Origin: Micromussa lordhowensis
Lineage: Eukaryota > Cnidaria > Anthozoa > Scleractinia > Lobophylliidae
Length of the DNA stretch: 64,000 nucleotides
Direction: 5' to 3'
NCBI GenBank assembly: GCA_964020085.1
Contig: OZ026608.1
Location: 362,381-426,380 of the forward strand
Shown here: positions 21,911 through 61,553 of the stretch, one piece after another
Numbering within the stretch: the stretch's first letter is position 1
Layout: the number at the start of each line of letters is the position of its first letter
The notes under the pieces: model-generated
What the model was told of the DNA's origin: nothing
The model's database searches: none
What the model saw: the letters and a program-made list of their open reading frames with translations, nothing else
Program-made: the position numbers and the translations under genes

Positions 21911-24900
21911 TCATTTCCATGTCACTGACCGTTTTGCCCCGTCCCGTGAAAAAGCTGCAAAACAAAAGCAAAATAATTTTACATCTCCGCGTGGCCATGT
22001 AGTATCCTCTGTTTAAATGGCAGTTAATAGCTTTTTGCATTGTTGCGAAATTAAAATCATTTAGAGTAAAGCCGGCCTTAATTTACTGAAACTGATTTAT
22101 TCATTGTTTTTATGTTATATGACGTATATTTAGCCATCAAACTGTCTTTAGCTAATTGATATTGCGAACCAATGTAAAGCGGAGATCAAAGGTAGAATGA
22201 CAGGACTTGAATCAAGCCAGAACAACAATTCCATCTTCGAAGTACAGACATTACATGCTTAGTTTTCCTTTTTTTATGTTTAATTCTCACGCCTAGTTGG
22301 AAAGCAAGTGTTTTATATTAGCTGGATTCGTGAAGTGAAACGTGTTACCTAAGAAGCTCGAGTTAAGCGAGCCGACATTTAGAGATTATTACCAAGGCAG
22401 CAGTCATTAAGTTAAATTGAAGTTTTAAACAATTCTCTTGGGCTAGAGTTGAAACTTCAGAAAAACGAGTTTTAAATGGCCATTAGAATTTATATTCTTT
22501 CTACTCGTAGCAAGGGTTTCATTTTCATCAGTACTTACCTTTGCTATACGAGTTTTGATTCCATGCAGGAACTGCTTCATCGAAGATTGCAGTTAACGTT
22601 TCCTCACCATTCGCAACCTTTATCTGATATACAAACAAAACAAATATTTTACAGTAACGTTTGATCAGCGTTTGGATATATTAAACAGGGTAAAAGTATA
22701 TTTAGTGCTCATATGTTACTTTTGTAGGGGATAAATATATCTCCTAAAATAATGGCCGGCTATACCAAAGATACCAGTGTCTATACTTTCTTTGTTATCT
22801 TTATATATCTTTATTTTTATTACAGATTCACTCCACGAAATTACAAACGGATAATAAATTAAATTAAAATGTATCGCTAGGAGAAGAAGACAACTAAAGC
22901 GCCGATGCACCATACTAGGGATGCCCCTTCTAATTAAAGTAGATGAAAAATATATACACACGTATAATAATAGATGTAATAGGTATGGGTTATTGACCAA
23001 GTGTGAGGTCAAGATGGCTGGATATTGGCCGAGTTTTTTTTTTTTTTGCGTGTTTATGGACCGAGACGGAGTCGAGGTCCATAAACACGCAAAAAAAGAA
23101 CGAGGCCAATATCAAGCCATCTTGACCGAACAAGCTTGGTCAATAAAGGATTTATTATATGGGTTTTAGGGAAATTTTTCTTGCGGGACAAGACGGGTAG
23201 TCCCGAGCGGGCAAGATGGCTCCATCTTGCCCGCTCGGGTAGCCAATCACAGCGCAGGATTTGATTCATCTTGCCCGCTCGCGGAGCTAGCCATATAATA
23301 ATTATCCTTAATAAAGCCGAAAACATTCTTTTTAAAAGTTGCAATCCTATTTGATTCTCTAATATGATTAAGGGCGCGTTCGTTAGGGATATCCCGGAAT
23401 AAGAATATATTCCGGAATATATTCCGGCTATTCTGCTCCCAAGGTATTCCGGAATGAGAATAGCTCCTAAACAAACGCTTACTCGCATTATTCCAATTAT
23501 TCTTATTCCGGATTGATCCCAAACGAACGCGCCCTAAGTAAACCATTCCATTCATTACACGTAACAATACGGTTAAAAAAGTATATTTAGGACCATTACT
23601 TCTACTAAAATTTGGAACAAGGTCCTGTGTGTCATTTTTCCACAAGTTATAACCGTGTTTCTGTCCTTATTTGAAATGTTTATATCATAATGGCCATCAA
23701 GGACATTGAACAAAAAATGTAACATCTCTAATGAACCTCCTATTAAATAACAACAACAATTTTAACTTAGTCTAGTATCAGAATCAGGTCTAGTGATTCA
23801 TCTGGTAGCTCTTCGCTGAACAGCCTCCAATTTATCACTGTTACGTTTAGTGTTCTTATACTATCAGTATCCTTTAAGTCCATACAAGTCCTATTTACCA
23901 ACCCTAAAACCATATTAGCCTTAGCAGTTAGTTTATCTACATGTTGGTTCCATGATATAACTAGCTGCAAACAATCCTAAATCTTTATAAACATTAGCAT
24001 ATTCCAAAGGTTGACCTTCAATGTTACACTCCCCGGTTAAGGGTGACTTTTTCCTGGTTGTTCGCATGATCTTACATTTCTTAGTATTAATAGTCATCTC
24101 ATTCATCTTACACCAACCTGATATTTTATCTATGTCACTTTGGAAAGTGGACAGATCTTTTTGAGTATTAATAACCCTGTACATTTTACTGTCATCAGCA
24201 TACAATGCTGATCGAAACTACGTCACTAGAAAAACGTTTACCGAAAATAATATCACAGTACCTTTTTAAGAGTCCAGTCAGCCCTTGGCTGTGGTTCAAT
24301 CCAAATCCTCTTCATGGCACCCACGTTAATATCCTTGAAACTGGCTTTGATGATAAGTTGGCTTCTAAAAGGAAACTGTAATCGGCAATCGTTCGAAAAA
24401 TGTTGTGCAAAATATGAAATTTCAATCAAAGTTAAATTAACATTTTCTCTGCAGGCAACTGCAACAATTAGTCCTCTCCCGAGAGTATAGCGGTGGAAAA
24501 GGACTACCTGAGTAAAAGGGATATGGTAGCGTGGTGTCCACCTGCTGTTCCTATCACATTGGATAAGGTAGGTAGTGTCCGTTCAAGCCCTGTGACCCAA
24601 GAGGTAGTTGCTTAATTATCTCCGGTTACCATAGCATGAAGCGACCAAGAGTATTTCTGCTCGGACTGGATAGCATGCTAGGCCATTGCAGGGTTACCCC
24701 ACTCTGGCAATACATGTTATTCGGCGTAAAGTTTAAAAGGAAAACAGAACCGGAATCGCGTTTTGTGGGCTCGGCTGGAATTCGCCATCACTCCTTAAAG
24801 GCATTACTTTCAGAAATGTTGTTGCAAACGTATTTTGTTTCCGATTTTAAGCCCAGTTTTACATTAAAAAAAACACACTAGGATGTGTCAAACCAAGAAT

Positions 24901-59600: not shown

Positions 59601-61553
59601 CAAAAACTGTGCCCTTTTTCTGTCGCCAACATTACACTTGTTCTCGTCATTATTGAGGTCTTCCATACAAAAGTCATGAACTTTGCAGCAGCTAAAGAAA
59701 ATAGAAAAGTAAACAAACAACGGGAAAATGCAAAAGATAAAAGGTAAAAGAGGGGCACAGAACAGTTAAAGGTCAAGTCATAGTTATATTTGTATGTGTT
59801 TGAATTTTACGTATTACGTGTCGCCAATCAATGGGCTCCGTGTAGGGACACCAGTTTCTAGTGACGACACATTAATAAAGTTGTTGATTGATAGAAGTTC
59901 AATTTATTTACACTTAAAAGGAAAGGAAAGAGAGGAAGAGAAGGAAAAGACATATTAATATGATAAGAGAGTGAATAAAACGAAAACAAAAATCGTGAAG
60001 ATGACGCGGATTTTATATTTGGCAAACGTTTCAAATTCTTGACAATTTGATGGTGTCCAGAGGCTTAAGTAATTTGTGTCTGTGTCTAATAATAATGATA
60101 CTAATATAAAATATTTATACAGGGAAACCACTTCAGTTATAAAACTGATATCAATGTGGGCCCTGTAAAATAAGACAAAGATGAAATGAGCATATTAAAA
60201 TAAATAAAAGGGGAAATTTTAAATGCGTAAAATACTAACTGGAAGGAAAATGTTGGGTTTTTCCATAATTTATGACGTTAGCATTTATTCATGAAAGAAA
60301 AACTGACAGTGACTCTGACTCTGGCAGAGTGGTTAAAATAATTTGGTTTACTTAACGACAGTTCTCCTTTCTTTTCGTGTATCAAATGCTAACCGCGCCG
60401 GATTCTTCTACGTTTACACTAAACATTTTGCTTGCTATTACCATAAAATCATAAGCTCCATGAAAGAAGGTAATTTTCACTCCCATAGCATCGTTGCTAT
60501 TTGACTTCCATGGTATAAAGCAAGGTCATACTTACTAATCAAAGTTGTCCACGTATTTTCCGTGTCCACGTCGACCGCACCAACAGCCGTAATTGTAAAG
60601 ATTACAAACGCTCGGTCTGCCTGTCACAGCTTTTATCAATTTTTCCAGCAGATTTGTCCTTGCATTGTCAGGTATACCTGGACACACCCTTTTCTCTCCT
60701 TTAACTTCTGAAAAATACATTGTTGAGAAACTTTCAACATTTTGAGAAAATCTTTATAGAGCCTGGCTCTCTTTAGACCGCAGCTGTTTTTATTGATGTC
60801 AGCAAAAAACCCCAAAATCAATGTTCTTGTTTCTCACGTCGTGAAAGGTTCTCTGCTAGCAACAAAAAAAATCATGTTTCTTAGTTATCTAATATAGCAA
60901 TTTATGAGTTAAAACTGACTACATAAATAGATTTTCGGTTTTTGCAATGAAATCATTTTTTTTTTTCACGATGTAATTAATTCAGTCATGCTGTAAAATT
61001 AAGGCCCCACCTTTGGGGCTGGCAGCCCATGAGGGTAACATTTTGACAAGGCATTTCGTCATCAATCAACTCATGAAAACAAAATATCAGCTGGCGTTTA
61101 CAAAAAATCACAACTTACCCTCTCCCAGACTTGTTTCCTTTAGTCGATTATATCTGGTAGATGAGGCTCGACCTTGTAAAAGAGACGATTTTATATTGAA
61201 AATTTTACGCTATTAACGCTATTATCCAATGCTCTTATCCTTGAATACGTGATAAATTAAGACTACACAATATCTGTAACAATTGTTTAATGGAGTAAAC
61301 AAATAGATTAGAAAATAAATTAATTGACTTACATAAAAATATAACGAATAAGAAATGCGTCAAATTGAAAACACAAATTTCAAATTAGTTAGAAAACACT
61401 TCGGATTTTGTGTTGTAATCTGAGTTATCTTATTTGAGTTATTATTGGTGCTGTTGTTTTTTTTTGTAAAATTCTGAAAGCAGGTAGGTTACTAACAGAC
61501 AAACCTATTAAAAACGTTGCCCAACCCACAAAAACGGCGAAGACAATCCTCAT
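50676..61553 (-). CDS. Gene B: secreted PLA2-vWA-vWA-PLAT-PLAT protein, 835 aa
   Basis: Seventeen coding exons (minus): 61553-61505, 61172-61119, 60707-60536, 59691-59561, 58858-58706, 58118-57784, 57414-57138, 56657-56320, 56081-55820, 54928-54793, 54255-54132, 53733-53640, 52981-52958, 52358-52211, 51608-51506, 51257-51173, 50698-50676. They sum to 836 codons; lengths equal gene A except exons 4 (+6), 8 (+3) and 17 (-21). Domain order is as in gene A. The propeptide ends in KR before VCPG. PLA2 has Ca-loop YGCWCGRRGHG, YCCKVHDFC (His97, Asp98) and Asp159 in CLCDMEMVRC, so the catalytic His-Asp network is complete here, unlike gene A. Both vWA domains have ILVIFSDGN but lack a full metal-binding DxSxS. 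The C-terminus is shorter, stopping at a TAA after SRNGA. A digestive, defensive or venom role cannot be decided from sequence. Confidence 0.78.
53165..53262 (-). mobile_element. MITE family 1, fragment in gene B intron
   Basis: Minus-strand match to the CTTGGTCATTTCACG and GGCAAA-AAATGTACAAA blocks of the family. It lies in the intron between PLAT1 and the microexon. Confidence 0.65.
53800..53912. mobile_element. Foldback element family 4, copy in gene B intron
   Basis: Shares GCGTGTTTGTGGACCTCGACTCCGTCTCGG and the TTGGCCAATATCCAGCCAT-type arm with 22990-23145. One arm is shortened. Confidence 0.75.
55225..55408. repeat. ATAATCATCGT minisatellite in gene B intron
   Basis: About 14 units of a motif near (G/A)TAATCATCGT, some with an AAATAATTGT variant, fill 180 bp of the intron between vWA2 and PLAT1. 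Absent from gene A. Confidence 0.93.
57475..57623. mobile_element. MITE with CAGTCGAAC termini, gene B copy
   Basis: Same family and same vWA1 intron as 32049-32412, but with a shorter interior. Confidence 0.65.
58380..58470. repeat. 15-bp tandem repeat GAGAGAGAAAGACWG
   Basis: Six near-identical units in the intron between the last PLA2 exon and vWA1 of gene B. They create repetitive Leu/Ser frames on the minus strand that are not real genes. Confidence 0.93.

What the first reader, a model, noticed from the sequence alone, without database searches (positions are those of the whole stretch)
21911..61553. Unusual domain architecture: PLA2 + two vWA + two PLAT-like domains in one secreted protein
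The sequence shows a signal peptide, a propeptide with a dibasic site, a PLA2 core (Ca-loop, CC-K-V-HD-x-C), two vWA folds (ILVIFSDGN) and two PLAT-like folds, joined by phase-consistent exons in two independent paralogues. Known PLA2s are mostly single-domain enzymes, and PLAT is known fused to lipases and lipoxygenases. I know of no described protein with this order. If real, it would be a lipase tethered by adhesion and membrane-targeting modules.
Basis: partly seen in the sequence, partly recalled or inferred. Interest (0 to 1): 0.88.

Follow-up and report, generated by a model that had tools for sequence, protein, structure and literature searches.

The report
Coral phospholipase with four docking modules
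Two neighbouring genes, likely from a stony coral, each line up exons for a phospholipase A2, two von Willebrand A modules and two PLAT modules, predicted to make one secreted enzyme that would dock on membranes before cutting their lipids; close variants of this layout occur in other stony corals, and our searches found no paper describing it.

The parts
61505..61553 (-). copy A exon 1: start codon and hydrophobic signal peptide
   Evidence: hydrophobic N-terminus read by eye, no signal-peptide predictor run
60536..60707 (-). copy A exon 2: propeptide ending KR, PLA2 N-terminal helix and Ca loop YGCWCGRRGHG
   Evidence: (PF00068 E 6.7e-6)
59561..59691 (-). copy A exon 3: PLA2 CCKVHDFC catalytic His-Asp
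58706..58858 (-). copy A exon 4: PLA2 C-x-C-D helix and tail
57784..58118 (-). copy A exon 5: vWA1, first half
57138..57414 (-). copy A exon 6: vWA1, second half (ILVIFSDGN)
56320..56657 (-). copy A exon 7: vWA2, first half
55820..56081 (-). copy A exon 8: vWA2, second half
54793..54928 (-). copy A exon 9: PLAT1 part 1
54132..54255 (-). copy A exon 10: PLAT1 part 2
53640..53733 (-). copy A exon 11: PLAT1 part 3
52958..52981 (-). copy A exon 12: 24-nt linker micro-exon (RAWLRPY)
   Evidence: a like peptide at the same place (ARAWLNPY) in P0002
52211..52358 (-). copy A exon 13: PLAT2 part 1
51506..51608 (-). copy A exon 14: PLAT2 part 2
51173..51257 (-). copy A exon 15: PLAT2 part 3
50676..50698 (-). 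copy A exon 16: short tail and stop (least certain exon)
37568..37616 (-). copy B exon 1: start and signal peptide
36142..36313 (-). copy B exon 2: propeptide ending RR, PLA2 Ca loop YGCWCGKRGHG
   Evidence: (PF00068 E 3.6e-5)
35693..35817 (-). copy B exon 3: PLA2 CCKVHDFC
34628..34780 (-). copy B exon 4: PLA2 C-x-C-E (Glu where copy A has Asp)
32694..33028 (-). copy B exon 5: vWA1, first half
31709..31985 (-). copy B exon 6: vWA1, second half
30676..31010 (-). copy B exon 7: vWA2, first half
30142..30403 (-). copy B exon 8: vWA2, second half
28781..28916 (-). copy B exon 9: PLAT1 part 1
28059..28182 (-). copy B exon 10: PLAT1 part 2
27134..27227 (-). copy B exon 11: PLAT1 part 3
25984..26007 (-). 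copy B exon 12: 24-nt linker micro-exon, identical to copy A
25241..25388 (-). copy B exon 13: PLAT2 part 1
24262..24364 (-). copy B exon 14: PLAT2 part 2
22539..22623 (-). copy B exon 15: PLAT2 part 3
21911..21954 (-). copy B exon 16: tail and stop

Best explanation
The two tandem genes read as PLA2-vWA-vWA-PLAT-PLAT proteins that are predicted to be secreted and would likely work as calcium-dependent phospholipase A2 enzymes docked onto lipid surfaces by their PLAT modules. Shown here: the exon order and phases, the PLA2, vWA and PLAT assignments, and close variants of the same architecture in other stony corals. Inferred: (1) the signal peptide sends the protein out and cleavage at the dibasic site (KR in A, RR in B) frees the mature enzyme; (2) the PLAT pair, whose modelled fold is that of lipoxygenase and pancreatic-lipase PLAT domains, holds the enzyme on membranes or lipid particles, probably helped by calcium; (3) the PLA2 domain hydrolyses phospholipid there, using the His-Asp pair; (4) the vWA domains, which lack the metal-site aspartate, act as protein-binding or spacer modules, not as integrin-type metal-dependent adhesion sites. 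The likely use is extracellular: defence, mucus, digestion or venom; these cannot be told apart from sequence.
Against: No transcript of this window was available; one mRNA is inferred, and P0002 does not reach the PLA2 part. The Ca-loop glycine is Arg in 7 of 8 readable loops, and copy B has Glu for Asp in C-x-C-D, so activity may be low or absent. The PLA2 part of the P0004 model has pLDDT under 50, so its fold rests on sequence only. PLAT2 of copy A has no Pfam hit, PLAT hits appear in only 5 of 9 pieces and 2 of 5 PLAT2s, and sequence searches of the PDB with the PLATs found no PLAT chain. Pocillopora P0009 and P0010 lack the whole or most of the third PLA2 exon, a model error or a real loss. 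PLAT calcium residues were not tested.
Confidence: 0.6

Rival explanations
1. The PLA2 domain is no longer an enzyme but a PLA2-shaped binding module in a secreted matrix or lipid-binding protein, much as in otoconin-90 (recalled).
For: Arg for a Ca-loop Gly in 7 of 8 readable loops; Glu for Asp in copy B; partly missing PLA2 in Pocillopora models P0009, P0010; company of four binding modules.
Against: The CC-K-x-HD-F-C word is intact in all 9 proteins that reach that stretch, and C-x-C-D in 7 of the 8 where the C-x-C-D/E word was read (12 examined); PLA2 dN/dS 0.51 between copies, like the other domains.
Confidence: 0.25
2. A nematocyst or mucus venom component: the PLA2 is the toxic payload and vWA/PLAT aim it.
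For: PLA2s are listed among potential toxin genes of Acropora digitifera and putative toxins of the sea anemone Actinia fragacea (PMC4604070 and PMC11857728, passages); tandem copies here and several paralogues in Oculina.
Against: The Acropora list was filtered against domain architectures unlike known toxins (PMC4604070, passages); the passages seen of either paper do not mention this fusion; no proteomic evidence for this protein was found; an 820-aa five-domain protein is large for a PLA2 toxin.
Confidence: 0.15
3. The exons belong to two separate genes (PLA2; vWA-PLAT) fused only by exon chaining.
For: No cDNA for the window; the only probable transcript, P0002, lacks the PLA2 part.
Against: Phase 1 junction between the third PLA2 exon and vWA1 in both copies; the same join in annotated P0001 and P0003-P0008, and a PLA2-vWA join in P0009 and P0010.
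Confidence: 0.03

Closest known systems
Secreted phospholipase A2, group I/II/V/X type (Pfam PF00068)
   Same: Signal peptide, short propeptide, Ca loop YGC-x-CG, CC-x-x-HD-x-C, C-x-C-D; the solved chains listed for P0006 are nearly all named phospholipase A2, group V and X among them; that others are pancreatic group I is recalled.
   Different: Known ones are mostly single-domain, about 120-150 aa (recalled; chain lengths agree); here four more modules follow, and the Ca loop has Arg for a Gly.
PLAT-bearing lipid enzymes: lipoxygenases (coral 8R-LOX) and pancreatic lipases
   Same: A PLAT domain attached to an enzyme that acts on lipid at a surface; both PLATs match these folds.
   Different: Different catalytic domain (PLA2); two PLATs, at the C-terminus as in pancreatic lipase but behind two vWAs.
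Collagen VI / integrin I-type vWA domains
   Different: The first Asp of D-x-S-x-S is Gln in 15 of 15 readable; the last Ser is Gly in 11, Ser in 3, Leu in 1; no collagen or integrin parts.
Oikopleura oikosins with PLA2 domains (oik44, 49-51)
   Same: Secreted PLA2-domain proteins of a marine invertebrate, argued to serve innate defence (PMC3390340, passages).
   Different: The passages read name PLA2 domains without vWA or PLAT in the same protein.

Membership tests
Secreted PLA2 (PF00068) | Profile match above cut-off | tested here: inconclusive
   Window: first PLA2 exon alone 27 bits (A) and 24.7 (B), cut-off 32.1; the exons were not joined. Homologues P0004-P0007 49.5-58.6 bits, 4 of 7 proteins scanned; P0003 15.7, P0001 and P0002 none.
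Secreted PLA2 (PF00068) | Catalytic His-Asp in CC-x-x-HD-x-C | tested here: met
   Both copies and P0004-P0010; P0001-P0003 start after that stretch
Secreted PLA2 (PF00068) | Catalytic-network Asp in C-x-C-D | tested here: inconclusive
   Asp in A and P0003-P0008, Glu in B; word not found in P0001, P0002, P0009, P0010 (12 examined)
Secreted PLA2 (PF00068) | Glycine calcium loop | tested here: inconclusive
   Loop readable in 8 of 12; one Gly is Arg in 7 (A, B, P0004-P0008), Gly in P0009. Residue numbers are recalled.
Secreted PLA2 (PF00068) | Ca-dependent sn-2 hydrolysis | not testable with these tools
   Needs an assay
PLAT/LH2 domain (PF01477) | Profile match | tested here: inconclusive
   A PLAT1 22.6 bits, cut-off 23; A PLAT2 none; P0004 27.8; 5 of 9 pieces and 2 of 5 PLAT2s match at E up to 1
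PLAT/LH2 domain (PF01477) | PLAT beta-sandwich fold | tested here: met
PLAT/LH2 domain (PF01477) | Calcium-binding, membrane-inserting loops | not tested
   No residue-level comparison made
vWA domain (PF00092) | Profile match and fold | tested here: met
vWA with functional MIDAS (integrin I type) | D-x-S-x-S metal motif | tested here: not met
   First Asp is Gln in 15 of 15 readable vWAs, of 16; alignment to integrin alpha 2

The most novel reading that the evidence does not exclude
A stony-coral invention at least as old as the split between the suborders of Montipora and Oculina: a self-targeting secreted phospholipase A2 family in which metal-blind vWA domains and paired PLAT domains aim the enzyme at chosen membranes (microbes, prey or symbiont-bearing surfaces), feeding free polyunsaturated fatty acid to PLAT-bearing coral lipoxygenases. 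It would be a new sPLA2 group defined by architecture.
Probability: 0.35. Interest if true: 0.7.

Novelty: new variant of a known kind. Interest (0 to 1): 0.58.

Why it matters
Secreted PLA2s are textbook small, single-domain enzymes (recalled). A coral family with built-in vWA and PLAT modules gives a natural test of how surface targeting changes PLA2 action, and bears on coral immunity, venom and oxylipin chemistry. It also warns that coral PLA2 or vWA genes scored by single domains can hide this architecture.

Tried and rejected
Rejected: two separate genes (same joins in annotated coral proteins). Rejected: a third intact PLAT for copy A; the block at 45.6-48.1 kb is a decayed PLAT2 copy with an in-frame stop and shifted frames. 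Rejected: PLAT as a chance call from weak Pfam scores. My first model had 15 exons and missed the linker micro-exon; Montipora-like proteins led me to it. A search of the minus-strand frames with four short patterns for the Montipora-type C-terminal tail found nothing, so the last exon stays least certain.

Led nowhere: Foldseek and VIA lists for the whole P0004 model were filled mostly by vWA and integrin chains, and its PLA2 part was poorly modelled. A search with the PLA2 region of P0005, among proteins 0.55-1.75 times its length, had only 18 candidates and 3 hits, all Oculina, and missed P0006 and P0008, so it says little about PLA2 fusions elsewhere. PDB sequence searches with the PLATs gave nothing or two ribosomal chains at E 0.057 and 0.55. 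Papers: searches gave 0 papers; some searches listed papers, of which I saw passages of PMC4604070, PMC6214176, PMC3390340 and PMC11857728, none with this fusion; the others were seen as listings only. One search listed five lipoxygenase papers, of which I saw passages of PMC7436259.
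Full report
What is there. On the minus strand lie two tandem copies of one gene. Self-comparison shows collinear similar blocks between 21.8-40.3 kb and 50.5-64.0 kb. I read the exons from the sequence and tabulated them: 16 exons per copy, 15 introns each with AG/GT borders, the same phase at every junction in both copies, 817 aa for A (61553..50676) and 821 aa for B (37616..21911). Order: signal peptide (by eye; no predictor run); propeptide with a dibasic site (KR in A, RR in B); PLA2 in three exons; vWA1 and vWA2 in two exons each; PLAT1 in three exons; a 24-nt linker exon; PLAT2 in three exons; a short tail.

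Is it coding? Aligned exon bases are identical in 2123 of 2434 (87%), against 809 of 1200 bases (67%) in 80-nt intron stretches after each donor; the two denominators are counted differently. dN/dS between copies is 0.51 PLA2, 0.57 vWA1, 0.54 vWA2, 0.43 PLAT1, 0.55 PLAT2, and 1.12 for the 16-codon signal peptide; pooled over the five domains, synonymous change exceeds replacement change, Fisher p 4e-7 on rounded counts (signal peptide, linker and tail left out).

Domains. vWA1 and vWA2 of A: 48.5 and 59.9 bits, cut-off 23.8. PLAT1 of A: 22.6 bits, cut-off 23; PLAT2 of A: none. First PLA2 exon: 27 bits (A) and 24.7 bits (B), cut-off 32.1; the other PLA2 exons give no PF00068 match alone. The homologues close the gap: of the 7 proteins scanned, P0004 has PLA2 49.5, vWA 38.9 and PLAT 27.8 bits, and P0005-P0007 have PLA2 (55.1-58.6) and vWA (40.8-52.5) above cut-off but no PLAT match; P0001 and P0002 have vWA and no PLA2 match, P0003 a weak PLA2 piece and a PLAT of 16 bits. 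P0008-P0010 were not in that scan; their Pfam domains are precomputed.

Relatives. A search of about 5.8 billion proteins with the vWA-PLAT part of copy A found 7 proteins, with P0004 as query 10 (itself included): Montipora foliosa, Oculina patagonica, Pocillopora verrucosa, P. damicornis and one unnamed entry (only about 8,000 candidates were scored each time, so wider relatives may be missed). Montipora is in suborder Refertina, Oculina and Pocillopora in Vacatina, so the architecture spans two suborders, with the caveat that the Montipora model has only the PLA2 tail. The window's nearest named relative is Montipora at 64% (the unnamed P0002 has 68%), so a stony-coral, probably acroporid, source is likely but not shown. 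Module number varies: PLA2-vWA-PLAT or PLA2-vWA-PLAT-PLAT in Oculina, PLA2-vWA-vWA-PLAT-PLAT in the window, with the same vWA-vWA-PLAT-PLAT run in Montipora. Window vWA1 is 80% identical to Montipora vWA1 but 67-70% to window vWA2, so the vWA doubling is older than that split. P0002, 616 aa on a 2017-base contig, is too compact for a gene of this kind with introns and is probably a transcript; it carries the linker peptide ARAWLNPY where the window has RAWLRPY. It does not reach the PLA2.

Residues that bear on function. In the vWAs the first Asp of the metal site is Gln in 15 of 15 domains read (4 in the window, 11 in homologues; the first vWA of P0002 is cut and unread); the alignment to integrin alpha 2 shows the same. 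In the PLA2, of 12 proteins examined (10 homologues, 2 copies), the Ca loop is readable in 8 and has Arg for a Gly in 7; the HD word is present in 9; the C-x-C-D/E word is present in 8 with Glu only in copy B. The names Gly32, His48, Asp49 and Asp99 for these places are recalled.

How it likely works. A secreted enzyme, trimmed at the dibasic site, docks on lipid by its PLAT pair and cuts phospholipid with its PLA2; vWAs give protein contacts or spacing without a metal site. Docking by PLAT is by analogy: coral 11R-LOX needs Ca binding at PLAT and membrane association (PMC7436259, passages). Enzyme activity, docking and role are untested. The strongest rival is a non-catalytic PLA2 module.

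Known or new. No paper in the searched library was found to join PLA2, vWA and PLAT (searches gave none; passages of four others; the rest seen as listings). The proteins sit in databases mostly as uncharacterized or hypothetical. Hence a new variant of a known kind: a secreted PLA2 with, as far as these searches show, an undescribed architecture.

Noticed in passing
45579-48133, minus strand: A decayed third copy of the PLAT2 block, with an in-frame stop and shifted frames, downstream of copy A.
   Followed up: partly
41646-42119, plus strand: A C-type lectin exon (PF00059, E 2.5e-13) on the opposite strand between the two copies.
   Followed up: no
1249-6296, minus; 3370-4764, plus: Long ORFs that read like gypsy-type polymerase/integrase and a LINE-type reverse transcriptase (by eye, no family search).
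   Followed up: no
38462-40297 and 62101-63981: The region upstream of both genes is duplicated too (76% over about 1.9 kb); not examined for promoters or exons.
   Followed up: no
27413-27915: A low-complexity tandem stretch open in several frames (SQPA/GRQA repeats), lying in the copy B intron between the second and third PLAT1 exons.
   Followed up: no
34628-34780: Copy B alone, of the 8 proteins where the word was read, has Glu where the others have the catalytic-network Asp, hinting that the two copies may differ in activity.
   Followed up: partly
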